A stretch of 64,000 nucleotides of DNA from Photorhabdus khanii NC19. Lineage in GTDB: Bacteria; Pseudomonadota; Gammaproteobacteria; Enterobacterales; Enterobacteriaceae. A program made the translations under genes and the position numbers. The notes below the pieces were generated by a model. That model saw only the letters and a program-made list of their open reading frames with translations. It was not told the origin of the DNA and did not search any database. How positions within the stretch are numbered: the first letter of the stretch is position 1; each line of letters begins with the position of its first letter. Positions 56,177 through 64,000 of the stretch are shown here, one piece after another. Location of the stretch: assembly GCF_000517265.1 (NCBI RefSeq), contig NZ_AYSJ01000017.1, forward strand, positions 1 through 64,000. The letters run 5' to 3'.

Positions 56177-57070
56177 CTATTTCTCTTGTGGAAATAAATT
56201 ATCTGCCATGAAATCGACAAAAGCTCTGACTTTGGGTAGTACCCAGCGGTTAGAGGGCCATAGGATACGGAAAGTACTCGAAGTACCCGCCCATTTGTCT
56301 AAAACTGTTAATAATGTACCGCTAGCCAATGCTTGCTTAACGGTAAAATCAGGTAAACAGGCGATACCGTGACCTTGGATCGCCATGTGAAGCAGCGTTT
56401 CGACATGATTGCTGGTCATCTTTGCCTGAAGATGTATATCTACTGAGGATTTTCCCGCGCGCAGCGGCCACTTCTCTAAAAGACCTGTAGTTGGAAAACG
56501 GTGCATCAGGCAGGCGTGATGTAATAACTCTTCGGGTTGTGATGGTTTACCGTGTTGGGCAAAATAGTTGGGAGCGCCAACATAAACGAAACGGCTGGAT
56601 CCTATACGTTTGTTCATCAATCGTGAATCATTAAGCTCTCCTGTACGAACCACCGCGTCGAAACCTTCATTAATGACATCAACTAATCGATCACTAAAGT
56701 CCAGCTCCAGTTCTATCTGTGGATAACGAGTCGCAAAAGCGGATAATACGGGCAGCATCAGATTACTGATTAATGGTAAGCTCACCCGAAGGCGACCTTG
56801 AGGGGCAGAGATGGAACTCAACAATTCATTTTCCGCCGTGGAGATTTCATCAAGGATACGTTTGCAGCGTTCAAGGAATAGTGAGCCTTCAGCAGTTAAA
56901 CTGACGCTACGGGTGCTACGCTGGAGCAGACGTACACCTAATTTCTCTTCTAATCGGGATATGCTTTTGCTGACGGACGAAGGAGATAGTCCGAGTTGCC
57001 GGGCTGCGTCTGCAAAGCTACGAGCTTCGGCGACATGAATGAAGATCATGAATCCACTCAAATTGTTCAT
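56177..57070 (-). CDS. LysR-family transcriptional regulator
   Basis: This 297-aa regulator has the winged helix-turn-helix at the N-terminus (SFADAARQLGLSPSSVSKSISRLEEKLGVRLLQRSTR) and a periplasmic-binding-like effector domain (about 90-290). It is closest in pattern to the large LysR group with DPSxLPLL-type N-termini that regulate adjacent transporters. It is divergent from the MFS gene at 57236, which it likely controls through the 165-base gap. The effector is unknown. Confidence 0.85.
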   Translation of the reverse strand: MNNLSGFMIFIHVAEARSFADAARQLGLSPSSVSKSISRLEEKLGVRLLQRSTRSVSLTAEGSLFLERCKRILDEISTAENELLSSISAPQGRLRVSLPLISNLMLPVLSAFATRYPQIELELDFSDRLVDVINEGFDAVVRTGELNDSRLMNKRIGSSRFVYVGAPNYFAQHGKPSQPEELLHHACLMHRFPTTGLLEKWPLRAGKSSVDIHLQAKMTSNHVETLLHMAIQGHGIACLPDFTVKQALASGTLLTVLDKWAGTSSTFRILWPSNRWVLPKVRAFVDFMADNLFPQEK

Positions 57071-57235
57071 CTAGGCCTCCTGGTTTTTTTAGATCACGAT
57101 TGGTGACAGAAAAGCCACTTCAGAAGTGATTGTAGGTCTATTTATCTACTATTAGCGACTCTGTAGTATGAAATAAAATACATCTTGCTCTGTCTGCCAT
57201 ATCGCGGCAAGTCACACATTACTCAAGGCTGGATC

Positions 57236-58753
57236 ATGAAAACTAAAATAAATACGGGAGCGAGTGTAAATAAAATTCCACTCGTCTTGACTGCTTGCCT
57301 TACAGCCGCTGTTATTCCTTTGAGTATCGCGGGACCCGCCGTTGTTGTGCCATCGATCAATCAAGCGCTTGGGGGCAGTGCTATAGAACTCAGTTGGGTG
57401 ATTAACGCCTACATTCTTACCTACGGTAGTGCAACAATGGCGGCGGGTAGCCTGGCCGATATTCACGGACGTAAGAAACTCTGGTTATTAGGTTTATTGC
57501 TCTTTGCTGTTGTTACTGCGGCAATACCTTATATGCCGTCCGTTTTTTGGGTTGATATTTTACGGCTTATACAAGGATTAGGGGCTGCTGCTGCCTTTGC
57601 GGGTTCAATGGCAGCATTGACTCAGGAATTTGAAGGTCATCAACGTACACGTATTTTTAGCCTGATTGGTACAACATTCGGGGCTGGCGCTGCTTTTGGA
57701 CCTTTTCTGGCGGGGCTGCTTATTGACACATTAGGGTGGCCGTGGGTTTTTTGGCTGCCCTCTCTGGTTGCATTGGCAGCAAGTATACTGGTCAGTATTT
57801 ATGCCCGGGAAACTCGTGATCCCGACGCTGAGGGGCTAGATTGGCCCGGAGCGATAACATTTACTTTGTCTTTAGCTGTTTTCACTTATGGGATCATTCT
57901 GGCGCCTGAAAAAGGATGGGGAAACAGTATAGTGCTGACGACACTAATATGTGCCGTTATTGTTTTCATCGTATTTATTGTTATTGAGCGGCAACGTTCA
58001 AAACCCATGTTAGACCTTTCTTTATTCGCAAACGCCCGCTTCGTTGGGGTACAGCTTCTCGCAATTGCGCCGGCGTATGCTTATGTTGTATTGCTTGTCA
58101 TACTGCCGGCCCGTTTTATTGGCGTAGAAGGGTACAGCGCATTAGAAGCTGGTCAGATGATGATTGCATTATCCGCACCTTTGCTAATAGTCCCCTTTAT
58201 TGCTGGTCAATTGGCTCGCTGGATTAATGTCGGTGTACTTTCAGGACTGGGGCTTATCATCGCGGCTATTGGATTATTTTGGTTAGGTTATGGAATTTCT
58301 GGTGATACAACAGCCGAAAGATTATGGCCAATGTTAGTTATTGGGATCGGGATTGGTCTGCCTTGGGGGTTGATGGATGGTTTGGCTGTGAGCGTGGTAC
58401 CTAAAGAGCGGGCAGGAATGGCGACAGGTATTTTCAATGCTGTCCGCCTGGCGGGAGACGGTATTGCATTGGCGGTGGTAGGCGCGGTTCTTTCTGCTCA
58501 TATAGCTTCGGGTTTAAATACACAGGGTAGTGTTCCAACCGATATTCTATCTGAAATATCTACGCGGCTTGCAATGAGCGATTTACATAACGCTGTTGCG
58601 ATTCACCCTTCATTAGATAAATCATTGCTTTATAAAGTATATGAAGAAGCATTTCGATATCAACTTATTGCGCTTGCAGTCGCGGCAGCCATTACCGCAA
58701 TCTTAGTGTTTATTTTGTTGGGGAAAGTAAAATCCCACAGCGAAAGTAAATAA
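57236..58753 (+). CDS. MFS efflux transporter, DHA2 family (SmvA/QacA-like)
   Basis: This 505-aa membrane protein has about 14 segments. Segment 1 holds VVVPSINQALGGSAIELSWVINAYIL, segment 2-3 GSLADIHGRKKLWLLGL (MFS motif A) and segment 5 GAGAAFGPFLAGLLIDTLGWPWVFW (antiporter motif C). Such proteins expel quaternary ammonium and other lipophilic compounds. AAGG lies seven bases before the ATG at 57236. It could also export the product of the operon downstream, but the 420-base gap and separate regulator argue for independent control. Confidence 0.85.
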   Translation: MKTKINTGASVNKIPLVLTACLTAAVIPLSIAGPAVVVPSINQALGGSAIELSWVINAYILTYGSATMAAGSLADIHGRKKLWLLGLLLFAVVTAAIPYMPSVFWVDILRLIQGLGAAAAFAGSMAALTQEFEGHQRTRIFSLIGTTFGAGAAFGPFLAGLLIDTLGWPWVFWLPSLVALAASILVSIYARETRDPDAEGLDWPGAITFTLSLAVFTYGIILAPEKGWGNSIVLTTLICAVIVFIVFIVIERQRSKPMLDLSLFANARFVGVQLLAIAPAYAYVVLLVILPARFIGVEGYSALEAGQMMIALSAPLLIVPFIAGQLARWINVGVLSGLGLIIAAIGLFWLGYGISGDTTAERLWPMLVIGIGIGLPWGLMDGLAVSVVPKERAGMATGIFNAVRLAGDGIALAVVGAVLSAHIASGLNTQGSVPTDILSEISTRLAMSDLHNAVAIHPSLDKSLLYKVYEEAFRYQLIALAVAAAITAILVFILLGKVKSHSESK

Positions 58754-59173
58754 AAATAATAGATTCAAAGTAATGGCTTTTCTATTCACTAGTTATATTA
58801 ATAATATAGATCACAGTTCTTCAGTAGCAGGAAAATGGATTGGTAATGAAACTCGAAGAGCTGACATTAATTACATAACTATTGATTATCTGTTAATTAG
58901 TGGAATTTTATTTCATTATCAGGAGAAATGTTACCATTATCTATTGTATTTATGAGCAGGATGTGGTTTTTTTACACATTTATTCATTTTAGAAAAATAA
59001 TAAACAATGTATTCTGTGAAATATCACTATACTGATTCTTGAAGCTATGAAATAAAAAATTACAGGCTGGATATTTTATAGATGCGGAAAAAAAGAGGAT
59101 ATGATAATAATAACTTGATATTAATTAATAAAAATTACCAATTGAAAAACTATTCTTTATTTTTTAGGGGATT
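58754..59173. other. AT-rich gap before the biosynthetic operon
   Basis: No convincing gene is present; an open frame at 58773-58955 has no recognisable protein. The AT-rich sequence should hold the promoter of the operon starting at 59174. I could not place one confidently. Confidence 0.5.
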
Positions 59174-60487
59174 ATGAATATGAACAAAAATATAATTAGC
59201 GTGCAAAAGGAAGCAGTTACTATCCCATCCGACAATTTTGAAACAGCCGAAATAGTTGCCAAGAGAACATATGTAAGATTAAACAATCCAAGTAAAAATA
59301 AAAGTTCTAAACGTGAAGCTTTAAATGGTCCGGTGATTTGGTTTGATACAGAAAAGCTGTCAGAACAAAGGCCAGATGACAGCATTTTCATCAGGGTAAT
59401 AAATTCTTTTTATAGTGGTATAATTTTATATCCAAATAATTTCTCAACTTTCATTGATGCAATACCCAAAAGAATGCAAATAATTTTGAGGGTTAAAACA
59501 TCTGAAGAGCTGATTAAATTCCGGGAAAGCGAACATTTCACTCTATTCAAATCTTTAGAGACAAATTCAAATAAATGTATCTGTTCTAATGATATTCTCA
59601 CTTTGAGAAAACTTAAAGAAGAGTCTATTGCTACTTGCTATGAAAGCTATGTTGATGATCAAGAAAGTTTACTTAAGACAATCAATGAAGGCATAGAATT
59701 CAACTTTCTCTGGATTCTTTTTCGTGACCCAACCAATATTCCCCTCGAATTGGTCATTGCATCATTACAATCTACCGGGACTATTTTGTTAAAAGAAATC
59801 AGAGATCCCAACGATGTCGATGATGCAATTGTATCTTATGGTGTTATGGAATATGGCGCTGAAGGCGTTATATTTTCACCCAATACACATGATGTCATGA
59901 GCGACTTTATCGATCGTTTATCATATAACAGAAAAGAATCACTGCAACTACAAGTAGGAATAATTACAGAAAGCCGTCCTGTAGGTATGGGGTATCGAGC
60001 TTGCATTGATGCATCCACATTATTCAGTGAGGATGAAGGCATGCTGGTAGGCAGTACCTCACAAGGCGCTCTATTGTGCTGTCCAGAAGTATTTTTTCTG
60101 CCGTATATGGAATTGAGGCCATTTCGTATTAACGCTGGAGCGATACATTCCTATGTATATAACTTCGGTAACCGGACAGATTATATGAGTGAATTAAAAG
60201 CTGGCTCATCGGTAATGGCGGTTAATTCGAAGGGAGAAGTACGACATATTACTGTTGGTCGTGTAAAAATCGAGCAGAGACCGCTTCGGTTAATTGAAGC
60301 AGAGTTTGCGGGGAACAAACGAGTCAATGTTTTGATGCAAGATGATTGGCATGTGCGCATTTTCTCTAGTGAGGCGAAACCTTTGAATATCTCTGAACTT
60401 AAACTTGGAGATAAGGTACTCGGATATATCACAGAGCCTGGTCGTCATGTTGGTATAAAAATTAACGAATCAATCATCGAGAAATAG
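59174..60487 (+). CDS. 3-dehydroquinate synthase II family protein (AroB'/GriH-like)
   Basis: This 437-aa protein belongs to the type II dehydroquinate synthase family, unrelated to ordinary AroB. Family blocks are clear: SRPVGMGYRACIDASTLFSE then GMLVGSTSQGALL (267-300), RPFRINAGAIHSYV (315-328) and VGRVKIEQRPLRLIEAEF (361-378). Archaeal members cyclise an amino-dideoxy-heptulosonate in an NAD-dependent step; GriH makes 3-amino-4-hydroxybenzoate. It is longer than typical members by an N-terminal stretch of ~60 residues without obvious domain. AGGGG precedes two possible ATGs (59174, 59180). First gene of the operon. Confidence 0.85.
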   Translation: MNMNKNIISVQKEAVTIPSDNFETAEIVAKRTYVRLNNPSKNKSSKREALNGPVIWFDTEKLSEQRPDDSIFIRVINSFYSGIILYPNNFSTFIDAIPKRMQIILRVKTSEELIKFRESEHFTLFKSLETNSNKCICSNDILTLRKLKEESIATCYESYVDDQESLLKTINEGIEFNFLWILFRDPTNIPLELVIASLQSTGTILLKEIRDPNDVDDAIVSYGVMEYGAEGVIFSPNTHDVMSDFIDRLSYNRKESLQLQVGIITESRPVGMGYRACIDASTLFSEDEGMLVGSTSQGALLCCPEVFFLPYMELRPFRINAGAIHSYVYNFGNRTDYMSELKAGSSVMAVNSKGEVRHITVGRVKIEQRPLRLIEAEFAGNKRVNVLMQDDWHVRIFSSEAKPLNISELKLGDKVLGYITEPGRHVGIKINESIIEK

Positions 60488-60496
60488 GTGACGATC

Positions 60497-61285
60497 ATGG
60501 GGTATATTGGAAGAAAATTAAGAGAAAGTAGATTGTTATTTCCCAATTCAAATAAAGGCTTGATCGTGCCAATTGATCATGGATTAACGATGGGGCCGAT
60601 CCCTGGTTTACAGAATATATATGCAGTTGAGCCGTGGATTAATAATAACTATGTTAGCGCTATTTTGGCACATAAAGGGGTATTAGAGAAGTTAATTTTA
60701 CGTGGCGCTTTGCGCCCATCAATTGGTGTTATTCTCCATATTAATGGTATGCCGATTATATCAGCATCGCCGGACACCAAAATATTGGTGGCGAGTATAG
60801 AGGCTGCTCTTCAGCTTGGCGCGGACGCTGTTTCTATACAGATAAATTTTACGGGAAAAAATTTTGAGCATAATTTATCGATATTAGGAATGGTGACTGA
60901 TATAGCACATGAAGCCGGGCTTCCGGTACTGACAATGTTATATGATAAAGTTATTTTCGAATCACCTGAAATAAAAATGGAAAGACTTCACCATTTAATC
61001 AGAATTGTCACTGAGCTTGGATCTGATGCAATAAAAATAGGATTTCCTGACTCGGAAACATCCATTATAGAAATTGTATCCCTTCATGGTTCTGATATTA
61101 AAATTTTCTTTGCTGGAGGAGAAAAAACTGCTGACAACATATTGATCGATAATACAAAAGTTGCTATTTCAGCTGGGGCTAGCGGATTATGTGTTGGCAG
61201 AAATGTTTTTCAAAATCTAAATCCGCAATCTCTGCTGAAAAATTTATATGAGTGCATAAACGCAGAGCTAATATCTTTGGCTTGA
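60497..61285 (+). CDS. DhnA-type class I aldolase (ADH synthase/GriI-like)
   Basis: This 262-aa TIM-barrel aldolase is the usual partner of the upstream enzyme. Known members condense aspartate semialdehyde with a sugar phosphate (archaeal ADH synthase) or with DHAP (GriI). Catalytic residues match: Asp27 in VPIDHGLTMGPIPGL, Tyr149 in TMLYDKV and the Schiff-base Lys180 in DAIKIGF. The phosphate-binding end is FFAGGEK and SGLCVGRNVFQ. I choose ATG 60497, with AGGTGA five bases upstream; GTG 60488, adjoining the previous stop, is an alternative. Which of the two reactions it catalyses cannot be read from the sequence. Confidence 0.85.
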   Translation: MGYIGRKLRESRLLFPNSNKGLIVPIDHGLTMGPIPGLQNIYAVEPWINNNYVSAILAHKGVLEKLILRGALRPSIGVILHINGMPIISASPDTKILVASIEAALQLGADAVSIQINFTGKNFEHNLSILGMVTDIAHEAGLPVLTMLYDKVIFESPEIKMERLHHLIRIVTELGSDAIKIGFPDSETSIIEIVSLHGSDIKIFFAGGEKTADNILIDNTKVAISAGASGLCVGRNVFQNLNPQSLLKNLYECINAELISLA

Positions 61286-61340
61286 TAAGAGCCTGTATAT
61301 CATAGATCTCATCAGTTGAATGTTACTAAAAGGGTTTATT

Positions 61341-62099
61341 ATGGAACTCGCTATCAACACTCAAAACGAGCCTAAACAAGAAACCGGTTATTTCTTATCA
61401 CCGTTGTGGGAAGATATTTTTTCTAAAGAGTTATTGGAAGAACTTAATTCGAATATATTTCTGGTGGCTTGTCGTTCTGGGCAGGCCAACCAAAGCTTAC
61501 TAAGAAAGTTTATGATTCAGCACCATTATTATTCACAATATTTTACCCGATATTTGTGTTCATTAATGGGAGGTTTAGCGGATCAAAAAGATTTTGTGTC
61601 ACTTTCTCATAATTTGCTGGAAGAGCTAACAGGAACTGATGCTGCAAAGATATCTCATGCAGAGTTATATAAAAAGGCGATGGCGGCTATCAATGCTGTT
61701 CCTAAAAGTGACGCAATTCTTAAAAGTACTCAGCAACTGATTGACGCGATGTTTCGCCACTGCCGGAGTGATGATTCCCTAAGAGGGCTGGCGGCGTTGT
61801 GTTTAGGTGCTGAGGCAATTGTACCTTTGGTTTATGGTCCCATCTTAGATGCATTGCGATCAATAAAGGCTTCTGATGACGCATTATATTTTTTCAAAAT
61901 CCATGTTGAGGAGGACGAAGATCATGCAATAGTGATGAGGAAAATTATTGATCGAATGATTGAAGAAAATCCTCACCGAAGGGCAGATGTTATTGCTGTT
62001 GGTGAAGAGATGGTGCGTTTTCGCATGGCAATGCTAAATGAGCTATATCAAAGTAATACCAGGGTAAATCTTAATGAATATAACGACACTATTATCTGA
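61341..62099 (+). CDS. Heme-oxygenase-like diiron oxidase (TenA/PqqC-fold)
   Basis: This 252-aa all-helical protein has the HDO (heme-oxygenase-like diiron oxidase/oxygenase) fold pattern. A full ligand set is visible: Glu94/Glu95 in NLLEELTGTD, His106, Glu158 in CLGAEAIVPL, and His188, Asp192, His195 in FFKIHVEEDEDH, a His-x3-Asp-x2-His motif like that of SznF and CADD. Known HDOs N-oxygenate amines, desaturate, cleave C-C bonds or make p-aminobenzoate. Here the likely substrate is the aminoaromatic from the upstream genes. ATG 61341 has AAAAGGG upstream. The 3' end overlaps the next gene by 26 bases. Confidence 0.75.
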   Translation: MELAINTQNEPKQETGYFLSPLWEDIFSKELLEELNSNIFLVACRSGQANQSLLRKFMIQHHYYSQYFTRYLCSLMGGLADQKDFVSLSHNLLEELTGTDAAKISHAELYKKAMAAINAVPKSDAILKSTQQLIDAMFRHCRSDDSLRGLAALCLGAEAIVPLVYGPILDALRSIKASDDALYFFKIHVEEDEDHAIVMRKIIDRMIEENPHRRADVIAVGEEMVRFRMAMLNELYQSNTRVNLNEYNDTII

Positions 62100-63780
62100 G
62101 CGTGATATAGACATTTTGCGTAATGATGACATGTTAGGCAGTGGTAATTTTCTTGACCGCTGTTTAGCGCTAAGTAATACCCCGGCGGTGGATTTTATTT
62201 TTACAGATAAACCCATAACCATTGCCGATGAACGCAATATTCAACAATTTAGTTTAAATACCCTGGCAAGTATTAGATGTGATCTTGCGGGTTGGTACTT
62301 GGCTAATGGAATTGAAACCGGAGATGTTGTCGCTGTTTGTATAGAAGATGGAATGGGGCCATTTTTGCATTACCTCGCGGTTACAAGTATTGGTGCGACA
62401 ATCGCTTTAATTAATCCGGCGATACCACCGGATATTGGTATCCCTTACATCAAAGAGAATGGTTTTAATAAACTGGTAACAGATGAGTTTTCTTTTAGTC
62501 ATAATTCACTGATCAAGAATTTACGGAATTCAGGAAATATATGTGCAATTCTGAATGTTGCAAATTTTAATACCGGGATTAAATACGATTTACCTTCTTG
62601 GTGGCCGTCTATTCCGATGGATACAACATTGCTAATGTTGAGCCATACCTCTGGTACGACAGGAATACCTAAAGCGGTAAAATTTGAACATCGTCAATTC
62701 TTTATGGGAAAACGCGCAAGACTTGGGCGTTTTGTCGAATCACCCGATGAGCGTTTGCTGACCGTTTTGCCGCAGTCACACTCCGCTGCGATTAGCCACC
62801 TTGAAACGGCTGTATTGCATGGCATCCCAACTTATGTACTCAGTAGCCAGGATGGTGAATCTGTACGGCAAGCGATAAGGGATTTTTCTCCTACAACGGT
62901 TGTTGCTTTTCCCAAAAGTTACGTTTCTTTGCTGGAACGCGGGGTATCGTATGGTGAATTTCCATCAATACGGCGATGGTTTAGCATGGGGGATGCCGCG
63001 CATCATAGTCACATTCGCCGTTTGCTGATGAGTTCTCCTGATGCACGTTATATCGATGCGTTTGGCAGTTCGGAGCTTGGCATGGCTTTGTTGCGAAGTG
63101 TCTCTACACTTGATCATATTGCGCCTCCCCGTGCTATTGGGCGTCCTGTGGATATAGTGACAGCCAAAATACTTGATATGGATTCTGGTGATGAAATGCC
63201 GGCAGGGAGTGTTGGATTACTCGCGGTATGTTCACCAACGATCACTTCTGGCTACTGGAAACAGAGTCAAAAGACCTCTGATGCCTGGCGCAATGGATAT
63301 TTTCTGACCGGAGATGTCGGATATTGCAAAGACGGTGTTTTTTATCAAATTGATCGGGTGGTTGATGTTATTCATACCCCTGGTGGTTCTTTGTATACAC
63401 TTCAACTTGAAGAAGCGATACAGACGATCGAAAGTATCTATGATGCAATAATTATTGGATTGGATTTATCTCATGCCAAGAATAGAGAAACGAAATTAGT
63501 CATATTAATTTTATTAAATGAGAAATTAACTTCGGATGTAAATATTATTGTAGAACAAGTTATTCAGCTAATGTTGGAAAAAATTGGAAGGAAATACTAT
63601 ATTAGAGAATATGCGATTATCGTTGTTAATAGCTTCGATCAAATCCCCACCGGCGCAACAGGTAAAGTTTTGAAGCGTAGATTAAAGGATATTCTCCCTA
63701 AAACTCTTGAGGAATATGAAAGAAATAAACAACTCCCCAATGGAATTTTAAAAATCGTTAACTACATATCGGCTAATTAG
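62074..63780 (+). CDS. Stand-alone AMP-forming acyl/aryl-acid ligase
   Basis: This 568-aa ANL-superfamily enzyme activates a carboxylic acid as its adenylate. Motifs in order are SHTSGTTGIPK (190-200, P-loop), DAFGSSELGM (328-337), GYFLTGDVGY (408-417), YQIDRVVDVIHTPGG (424-438) and TGATGK with catalytic Lys531. It is not part of an NRPS here and no carrier protein is visible in the window. It could load the aminohydroxybenzoate or a fatty acid onto CoA, a carrier or an amine. AGGG lies about 10 bases before its ATG. Confidence 0.88.
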   Translation: MNITTLLSERDIDILRNDDMLGSGNFLDRCLALSNTPAVDFIFTDKPITIADERNIQQFSLNTLASIRCDLAGWYLANGIETGDVVAVCIEDGMGPFLHYLAVTSIGATIALINPAIPPDIGIPYIKENGFNKLVTDEFSFSHNSLIKNLRNSGNICAILNVANFNTGIKYDLPSWWPSIPMDTTLLMLSHTSGTTGIPKAVKFEHRQFFMGKRARLGRFVESPDERLLTVLPQSHSAAISHLETAVLHGIPTYVLSSQDGESVRQAIRDFSPTTVVAFPKSYVSLLERGVSYGEFPSIRRWFSMGDAAHHSHIRRLLMSSPDARYIDAFGSSELGMALLRSVSTLDHIAPPRAIGRPVDIVTAKILDMDSGDEMPAGSVGLLAVCSPTITSGYWKQSQKTSDAWRNGYFLTGDVGYCKDGVFYQIDRVVDVIHTPGGSLYTLQLEEAIQTIESIYDAIIIGLDLSHAKNRETKLVILILLNEKLTSDVNIIVEQVIQLMLEKIGRKYYIREYAIIVVNSFDQIPTGATGKVLKRRLKDILPKTLEEYERNKQLPNGILKIVNYISAN

Positions 63781-63807
63781 AATTTATTATAAAGAAGGTG
63801 AAGTATT

Positions 63808-64000
63808 GTGAGCAAAGTTTCTCATGAAGGTCCTGTTGTCGAAGCTATAAAACAAAAATTGATCCTTGCTGAATCTTCCGATGTCTCTGAGTTTGAATGT
63901 ATGGGACGGTTATTTAACATTCATAAAAATGTGTTCCCACCCACTCATTTTCAGTCCACTGGTATATTCACTAAGAATATTCCCTATACTCAAAATACCT
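63808..64000 (+). CDS. N-terminus of a likely SAM methyltransferase (partial)
   Basis: A GTG start (63808) preceded by AAGAAGGTGA opens a frame that runs off the window: 64 residues including GRLFNIHKNVFPPTHFQSTGI. The VFPPTHFQSTGIF pattern resembles the linker before the methyltransferase domain in HemK-like class I enzymes. The catalytic motifs lie beyond the window, so the call is tentative. It continues the operon 27 bases after the ligase. Confidence 0.45.
   Translation, partial: MSKVSHEGPVVEAIKQKLILAESSDVSEFECMGRLFNIHKNVFPPTHFQSTGIFTKNIPYTQNT

What the first reader, a model, noticed from the sequence alone, without database searches (positions are those of the whole stretch)
59174..64000. 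Candidate small-molecule cluster built on an archaeal-type aromatic pathway
Five co-directional, tightly packed genes follow a sharp change from core to accessory DNA: a type II dehydroquinate synthase homologue, a DhnA aldolase, a diiron oxidase, an AMP ligase and a probable methyltransferase. The first pair is known from archaea and from 3-amino-4-hydroxybenzoate (3,4-AHBA) synthesis in actinomycetes (grixazone GriI/GriH). Enterobacteria have normal aroB, so the pair is not needed for aromatic amino acids. I infer a product in which a 3,4-AHBA-type ring is oxidised, activated and methylated. I do not recall a described product for this gene set.
Basis: partly seen in the sequence, partly recalled or inferred. 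Interest (0 to 1): 0.85.

Follow-up and report, generated by a model that had tools for sequence, protein, structure and literature searches.

The report
Photorhabdus operon for a diazo compound
A nine-gene operon in an insect-killing Photorhabdus appears to build 3-amino-4-hydroxybenzoic acid and turn its amine into a reactive diazo group; an iron enzyme, fused to the diazo-forming enzyme in relatives, stands where known pathways have their nitrite-making genes.

Summary
The five genes are real, but they are the start of a nine-gene operon (59174 to 69320 on the extended contig), accompanied by LysR and MFS genes. The 3,4-AHBA inference is supported: A and B are 56% and 43% identical to the pair in the Pyxidicoccus fallax closoxazole cluster, and an ordinary aroB lies elsewhere.

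The key correction concerns the 'AMP ligase'. It belongs to the ATP/nitrite-dependent diazotase group (CreM, AvaA6, Tri17), not to the CoA or aryl-AMP ligases. The core A-F matches the cremeomycin gene logic: 3,4-AHBA pair, flavin hydroxylase, methyltransferase, diazotase. CreE/CreD, which supply nitrite there, were not found in this genome, and it has no recognised Nar/Nap nitrate reductase. [quoted passage not shown] This HDO is fused to the diazotase in Burkholderia, Trinickia, Pseudomonas otitidis and other Photorhabdus, and to a cupin in myxobacteria. Decayed Photorhabdus loci keep the HDO and cupin under purifying selection.

Best reading: a diazo pathway from 3,4-AHBA (about 0.75), with HDO and cupin supplying the nitrosating nitrogen (inferred, about 0.35). 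No product has been shown.

The parts
56177..57070 (-). LysR-type regulator, probable cluster regulator
   Evidence: PF00126/PF03466; moves with MFS and A-I to a second site in other Photorhabdus
57185..58753 (+). MFS (DHA2/EmrB-like) transporter, probable exporter
   Evidence: PF07690, TIGR00711; co-moves with the cluster
58754..59173 (.). AT-rich (GC about 0.26) leader of the operon; 11-bp inverted repeat arms at 58906-58916 and 59047-59057
   Evidence: promoter-like sites not clearly above shuffles (8 versus 4.6 +/- 2.0)
59174..60487 (+). A: type II dehydroquinate-synthase homologue, probable 3,4-AHBA synthase (GriH/CreH/PfxD role)
   Evidence: PF01959 2e-89; 56% to Pyxidicoccus fallax and 64-67% to Burkholderia, Erwinia, Trinickia and P. 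otitidis
60488..61285 (+). B: DhnA-type aldolase, probable first enzyme of the 3,4-AHBA pair (GriI/CreI/PfxE role)
   Evidence: MJ0400 E 4e-35, DHG and Schiff-base Lys (AIKIGF) kept
61320..62099 (+). C: heme-oxygenase-like diiron oxidase (HDO), ligand set kept (E101/E102, H113, E165, H195, D199, H202)
   Evidence: PF14518; alignment A1; model pLDDT 85.7, Z 24.0 to CADD and 23.8 to N-oxygenase HrmI
62074..63780 (+). D: AMP-forming enzyme of the CreM/AvaA6/Tri17 diazotase group; fused to C in most relatives
   Evidence: best NCBIfam AvaA6 diazotase; PDB 9xb8, 8ztz and Tri17 8tf7/9bq0 at E 5e-66 to 8e-55 versus 3e-25 for CoA ligases; GDxxHxxH motif; fusion
63808..64000 (+). E: class I SAM methyltransferase (continues to 64503 on the contig)
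   Evidence: PF05175/PF13847; 52-56% homologues at the same position in Burkholderia, Erwinia and others

Best explanation
A nine-gene biosynthetic operon for a 3,4-AHBA-derived diazo (ortho-diazophenol, cremeomycin-like) metabolite. Proposed steps: B and A make 3-amino-4-hydroxybenzoate from aspartate semialdehyde and dihydroxyacetone phosphate. F, a flavin monooxygenase, hydroxylates the ring and E methylates it. D uses ATP and nitrite to convert the aryl amine into the diazo group. C, a diiron HDO acting with the cupin H, supplies the nitrosating nitrogen (nitrite or an equivalent NO+ donor) in place of the CreE/CreD aspartate-nitrosuccinate pathway. G, H and I are Photorhabdus-specific tailoring; the MFS exports and LysR regulates. 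Shown by sequence: gene content, family membership, conserved order, HDO-diazotase and HDO-cupin fusions, purifying selection. Inferred: substrates, step order, the HDO reaction, and the product.
For: A and B: closest characterised-cluster relatives are the 3,4-AHBA pair of the closoxazole cluster (PMC12118335), with aroB elsewhere. D: AvaA6 diazotase is its best NCBIfam model (259 bits versus 180 for the next), the four top PDB chains include Tri17, an N-nitrosating enzyme, and the GDxxHxxH motif is shared by all 13 proteins compared and by the PDB relatives but absent from the CoA-ligase match. F is 47% identical to the flavin monooxygenase beside a CreM-like gene in a Streptomyces cluster that also has CreE-like and CreD-like genes. 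A-F order is kept in Burkholderia, Trinickia and P. otitidis. HDO: diiron ligands invariant; one ORF with D in Burkholderia, Trinickia, P. otitidis and four other Photorhabdus; D-C-H adjacent in five Myxococcota; HDO-cupin in one 433-aa ORF in others. CreD-like query: none in this genome, control rings at 1e-200. CreE-like query: none in 15 genomes or records. This genome's Molydop_binding proteins are two FdnG-type, DmsA and, from its length, NuoG: no Nar/Nap recognised. Decayed loci keep HDO and cupin under purifying selection (omega 0.06 and 0.17).
Against: No product or enzyme activity is known. D falls far below the AvaA6 curated cut-off (259 versus 975 bits). I know of no HDO shown to make nitrite; HDO precedents are N-oxygenation, desaturation and C-C cleavage. 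Erwinia rhapontici and a Klebsiella plasmid carry D without an HDO and without CreE/CreD hits, so nitrite can come from elsewhere. Burkholderia and Trinickia have the HDO although they also have molybdenum enzymes of nitrate-reductase size. Methyltransferase E shows no BLAST similarity to the methyltransferase next to CreM in the Streptomyces cluster. The CreE query had no positive control inside that search, although it matches the second Streptomyces cluster at 71%.
Confidence: 0.5

Rival explanations
1. Same diazo pathway, but nitrite comes from outside (host nitric oxide or medium nitrate/nitrite) and the HDO does another step, such as N-oxygenation of the aryl amine to a nitroso or nitro group, or oxidation of the diazo product.
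For: Erwinia rhapontici and the Klebsiella plasmid have the diazotase but no HDO; HrmI and RohS, structural relatives of C, are N-oxygenases; alanosine clusters without ANS genes are thought to use nitrate/nitrite reductases (PMC11705231).
Against: HDO is physically fused to the diazotase and not to the hydroxylase or methyltransferase, the HDO-cupin pair also occurs without a diazotase, and this genome has no recognised Nar/Nap.
Confidence: 0.35
2. D activates the acid as an aryl-AMP/CoA ligase and the product is an amide, ester or benzoxazole built from 3,4-AHBA.
For: 3,4-AHBA genes with AMP ligases make closoxazoles in P. fallax (PMC12118335); D is in the same superfamily as acyl-CoA ligases.
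Against: Group-specific motif and nearest relatives are diazotases. No condensing amidohydrolase, carrier or acyltransferase in the operon. In Hyalangium, which does carry a BagE/FevW-type ligase beside A and B, D and C are additional genes.
Confidence: 0.1
3. Diazotisation is a cryptic step: nitrogen is later lost as N2 (as in avenalumic and p-coumaric acid) or the pathway ends in an azo or phenoxazinone product, so the final metabolite carries no diazo group.
For: ava/cma pathways; the crx cluster with 3,4-AHBA and CreM/D/E homologues yields crexazones and texazone (PMC11429834); G, H and I give ample redox tailoring.
Against: No gene was recognised as an AvaA7-type denitrification enzyme, although no AvaA7 sequence was available to search with; alkylation-repair genes beside related clusters point to a reactive product.
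Confidence: 0.25
4. Housekeeping aromatic amino acid route in an organism lacking AroB.
For: Type II DHQ synthase and DhnA aldolase are the archaeal route.
Against: aroB (PF01761, E 3e-51) is present at G000:C11:428583-428921; the operon is absent from most of the genus (diazotase in 5 of 12 genomes) and from all 394 other genomes sampled in the order.
Confidence: 0.01

Closest known systems
Cremeomycin cluster (cre, Streptomyces cremeus)
   Same: 3,4-AHBA pair, CreM-type diazotase, methyltransferase, and a flavin hydroxylase (the last from own knowledge of CreL)
   Different: No CreE/CreD found; an HDO is next to or fused with the diazotase; methyltransferase apparently of another family; extra FMO, cupin and SDR; gammaproteobacterial host
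crx cluster (crexazones, Streptomyces sp. CS057, PMC11429834)
   Same: 3,4-AHBA genes, CreM and CreN homologues
   Different: crx has CrxD/CrxE and NRPS-related genes; the word heme does not occur in the paper, so no HDO is reported
Avenalumic acid AvaA6, p-coumaric acid CmaA6 and triacsin Tri17 diazotases/N-nitrosating enzymes
   Same: D belongs to this enzyme group by profile, nearest structures and motif
   Different: About 29-38% identity to the distant group members tested; fused to an HDO in relatives; substrate unknown
Closoxazole clusters (Clostridium cavendishii clx, Pyxidicoccus fallax pfx)
   Same: Homologous 3,4-AHBA pair
   Different: No condensing amidohydrolase or PaaK-type ligases here
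SznF/StzF (streptozocin): HDO plus cupin N-nitrosating enzyme
   Same: HDO with E/H/E/H/D/H ligands paired with a cupin; the C family is fused to a cupin in Myxococcota
   Different: Here HDO and cupin are separate proteins and an ATP-dependent diazotase is present; no guanidine substrate implied
CADD (Chlamydia 4-aminobenzoate synthase)
   Same: Fold and diiron site
   Different: About 18% identity over the structure; aligned positions lack Tyr residues next to the CADD site, so self-sacrificing chemistry is unlikely

Membership tests
CreM/AvaA6/Tri17 diazotase group | Nearest to characterised diazotases rather than to CoA ligases | tested here: met
   AvaA6 model best; Tri17 structures E 8e-55, CoA ligases 3e-25
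AvaA6 equivalog (3-aminoavenalumate diazotase) | Curated NCBIfam cut-off | tested here: not met
   259 bits versus 975: D is not an AvaA6 orthologue; CreM-like proteins in Streptomyces clusters also fall short at 332-396 bits
CreM/AvaA6/Tri17 diazotase group | Mg-ATP glutamate, A3 and A10 motifs and GDxxHxxH motif kept | tested here: met
CreM/AvaA6/Tri17 diazotase group | Uses nitrite and ATP to diazotise an amine | not testable with these tools
   needs an enzyme assay
Cremeomycin-type cluster | 3,4-AHBA synthase pair, diazotase, methyltransferase and flavin hydroxylase together | tested here: met
   F 47% to the hydroxylase of a CreM/D/E-bearing Streptomyces cluster
Cremeomycin-type cluster | CreE and CreD nitrite-forming genes | tested here: not met
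   CreD-like absent from G000 with a ringing control; CreE-like absent from 15 genomes or records (no control in that run); none in the operon. So: works like, but is not filed as, a cre cluster
3,4-AHBA synthase (GriH/GriI type) | DHQS-II homologue adjacent to DhnA aldolase, aroB present elsewhere | tested here: met
3,4-AHBA synthase (GriH/GriI type) | Product is 3,4-AHBA and not dehydroquinate | not testable with these tools
   inferred from 56%/43% relatives in the closoxazole cluster
Heme-oxygenase-like diiron oxidases | Fold and six metal ligands | tested here: met
CADD family (TIGR04305) | NCBIfam TIGR04305 cut-off | tested here: not met
   52 bits versus cut-off 200
Closoxazole-type benzoxazole cluster | Condensing amidohydrolase and aryl-AMP ligases | tested here: not met
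   no such gene among the ORFs of the operon and its flanks

The most novel reading that the evidence does not exclude
The HDO, with its cupin partner, is a new self-contained nitrite or nitrosyl generator that replaces the CreE/CreD pathway and passes its product to the diazotase, in several lineages within one polypeptide.
Probability: 0.35. Interest if true: 0.82.

Novelty: new variant of a known kind. Interest (0 to 1): 0.62.

Why it matters
The diazo clusters covered by the review and papers read here are actinobacterial, and most rely on CreE/CreD for nitrite. Where the distal nitrogen comes from in clusters lacking those genes is an open question in N-N bond biosynthesis. This operon family (Photorhabdus, Burkholderia, Trinickia, Pseudomonas, Erwinia, myxobacteria) offers a compact test case in which an HDO is fused to a diazotase. 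It also suggests an unexplored reactive metabolite in an insect-pathogenic symbiont and, beside related clusters, alkylation-repair genes that could be self-protection.

Tried and rejected
Housekeeping aromatic pathway: rejected, aroB present. CoA/aryl-AMP ligase role for D: disfavoured by motif and nearest relatives. CADD-like self-sacrificing role for C: TIGR04305 cut-off failed and flanking Tyr not aligned. Sequencing error as the cause of the C/D split: rejected, P. tasmaniensis has the same split with a similar overlap. Rfam search of the region: nothing. Promoter and terminator scans: not clearly better than shuffles. Paper searches for Photorhabdus or Burkholderia with 3,4-AHBA or diazo clusters: no relevant hit in the open library. 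PDB relatives of A: none. HDO profile over 398 Pseudomonadota genomes: only this genome, so the family is rare. A second family search on the Myxococcota cluster failed on a frame error and was not repeated.
Full report
WHAT IS THERE. The window is bases 1-64000 of a 400-kb contig in a 5.23-Mb genome. Reading past the window shows four more genes on the same strand, with gaps of 27 to 57 bases from D to I: F 64544-66211 and G 66269-67993 (flavin monooxygenases, PF01494), H 68049-68519 (single-domain cupin) and I 68574-69320 (SDR). After I come ORFs recognised as chitobiase (chb), fur and fldA; before LysR comes glnS. So an accessory block sits between glnS and chb-fur.

THE BLOCK IS A UNIT. 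In P. caribbeanensis, P. luminescens DSM 3368, P. akhurstii and P. noenieputensis, LysR-MFS-A-B-C-D-E-F-G-H-I occurs in the same order at 79-90% identity. In P. caribbeanensis it is next to the deo genes, not at glnS-fur, which indicates that LysR and MFS belong to the unit. A-I show dN/dS of 0.08-0.21 between the window and P. luminescens, so the operon is maintained.

A AND B: 3,4-AHBA. A is in the type II DHQ synthase family. B aligns with MJ0400 and keeps the DHG motif and the Schiff-base lysine. The homologous pair in the characterised closoxazole cluster of Pyxidicoccus fallax DSM 14698, assigned there to 3,4-AHBA supply (PMC12118335), is 56% and 43% identical. Ordinary aroB is present. 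That the product is 3,4-AHBA is inferred, not shown.

D IS A DIAZOTASE-TYPE ENZYME. The best NCBIfam model is AvaA6, 3-aminoavenalumate diazotase (258.6 bits; next, a fatty-acid CoA ligase, 180). D is well under the AvaA6 cut-off of 975, so it is a relative, not an orthologue; CreM-like proteins from Streptomyces plasmids behave the same way (332-396 bits). The four best PDB chains (E 5e-66 to 8e-55) include 8TF7/9BQ0, which a review identifies as Tri17, the N-nitrosating enzyme of triacsin synthesis. CoA ligases start at 3e-25. A GD[A/T/S]xHxxH motif is present in all 13 proteins compared and in the top PDB relatives, and absent at that place in the malonyl-CoA synthetase alignment. The Mg-ATP glutamate region (GSSELG) and the A10 lysine motif are kept.

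CORE LOGIC EQUALS CREMEOMYCIN WITHOUT CreD/CreE. F is 47% identical to a flavin monooxygenase that sits next to a CreM-like gene in a Streptomyces plasmid cluster bearing CreE-like (FAD/NAD(P)-binding) and CreD-like (adenylosuccinate-lyase family) genes. These were named CreE-like and CreD-like by annotation and position, not by comparison with the Cre proteins themselves. CreM acts on 3-amino-2-hydroxy-4-methoxybenzoate (PMC11705231), so a hydroxylase and a methyltransferase between 3,4-AHBA and the diazotase are what the cremeomycin route needs. E shows no BLAST similarity to the methyltransferase of the Streptomyces cluster, so its methylation site is open. A CreD-like query found nothing in this genome while its control rang at 1e-200. 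Partial 41-43% matches in Burkholderia and P. otitidis may be ordinary cycloisomerases; this was not tested. A CreE-like query found nothing in 15 genomes or records; that run had no positive control, but the query matches the second Streptomyces cluster at 71%. A Molydop_binding search found four proteins in this genome. Three were identified as two formate-dehydrogenase-N type and DmsA; the fourth has the length of NuoG. None looks like NarG or NapA, while proteins of NarG size were found in Burkholderia, Erwinia, Trinickia and Roseateles. No nitrite source is therefore recognised in this genome, although host or environmental nitrite cannot be excluded.

C: AN HDO TIED TO THE DIAZOTASE. The diiron ligand set is invariant. 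The predicted structure (mean pLDDT 85.7) matches CADD (Z 24.0) and the N-oxygenase HrmI (Z 23.8), which are tied, then UndA, FlcD, HamA, BesC and RohS. A shared fold does not give the reaction. C and D form one reading frame in Burkholderia, Trinickia, P. otitidis and four other Photorhabdus (816-848 aa). In the window and in P. tasmaniensis they are split by a short overlap, so the split is not a sequencing error. In five Myxococcota the order is D-C-H, next to A and B. In other Myxococcota an HDO and cupin of the same families occur without a diazotase nearby, and in the one checked by Pfam they share one 433-aa reading frame, an arrangement like SznF, where the HDO domain N-hydroxylates and the cupin domain rearranges to the N-nitroso product. 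At the glnS-fur site of P. caribbeanensis, and at the equivalent site of P. luminescens, a decayed second copy keeps intact HDO and cupin genes while E (and in P. caribbeanensis D) are remnants and A, B, F, G and I are gone; HDO and cupin there show dN/dS of 0.06 and 0.17 between the two species. Together this says that the HDO works with the diazotase and with a cupin, and can act in trans. The simplest reading is that it supplies the nitrosating nitrogen. That step is inferred and has no direct precedent known to me.

COUNTER-EVIDENCE. Erwinia rhapontici (A-B-D-E-F-cupin-SDR-MFS) and a Klebsiella michiganensis plasmid (A-B-epimerase-MFS-D) have the diazotase without an HDO. Erwinia has a protein of nitrate-reductase size, which fits nitrite from elsewhere but shows that the HDO is not universal. 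In Burkholderia, P. otitidis, Roseateles and Erwinia a different cupin (X1; the Burkholderia one is 75-87% identical to the others) follows F, so cupins in these clusters need not all serve the HDO.

SELF-PROTECTION HINT. An Ada-type O6-methylguanine repair gene lies near the Trinickia cluster. Ada plus a PF09859 oxygenase (damaged-DNA repair) lie directly upstream of A in Erwinia. Ada-domain and methylated-DNA-cysteine methyltransferase genes flank the Streptomyces CreM/D/E-like clusters. A DNA-alkylating product is a reasonable inference; no such gene was seen beside the Photorhabdus operon.

VERDICT. Observation confirmed and extended. This is a new variant of the cremeomycin-type 3,4-AHBA/diazotase pathway, with an HDO in the place of the nitrite module. 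Confidence by step: 3,4-AHBA 0.85; D a diazotase 0.8; final product still containing a diazo group 0.5; HDO as nitrite/nitrosyl source 0.35.

Noticed in passing
L028 10001-15380 (P. tasmaniensis); L039 8116-11987 and L040 7512-11524 (P. caribbeanensis, P. luminescens): Decayed copies of the cluster at the glnS-fur site, with HDO and cupin intact while most other genes are broken or lost.
   Followed up: yes
L018 7888-9703; L020 1234-2331; L031 25167-26599; L032 27174-28595: DNA alkylation repair genes (Ada, PF09859 oxygenase, O6-methylguanine methyltransferase) next to related clusters in Erwinia, Trinickia and Streptomyces.
   Followed up: partly
L030 10723-16656: Klebsiella michiganensis plasmid from the fruit fly Bactrocera dorsalis carries a small cluster of 3,4-AHBA pair, epimerase, MFS and CreM-type enzyme.
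   Followed up: no
L072 9490-10791; L070 9384-10685: 433-aa reading frames spanning HDO and cupin in Myxococcota, in clusters with an SDR and (L072) a LuxR regulator, a DUF2817 protein and an N-hydroxylase-like flavoprotein, without a diazotase nearby.
   Followed up: partly
L041 8358-9386 (G009:C19): A second, partial diazotase-like match (39% identity over residues 13-353) in another Photorhabdus genome.
   Followed up: no
L003 2-13999 (contig 76001-90000): Downstream of the block, outside the window: a type I secretion gene set and a very large RTX-type protein gene.
   Followed up: no
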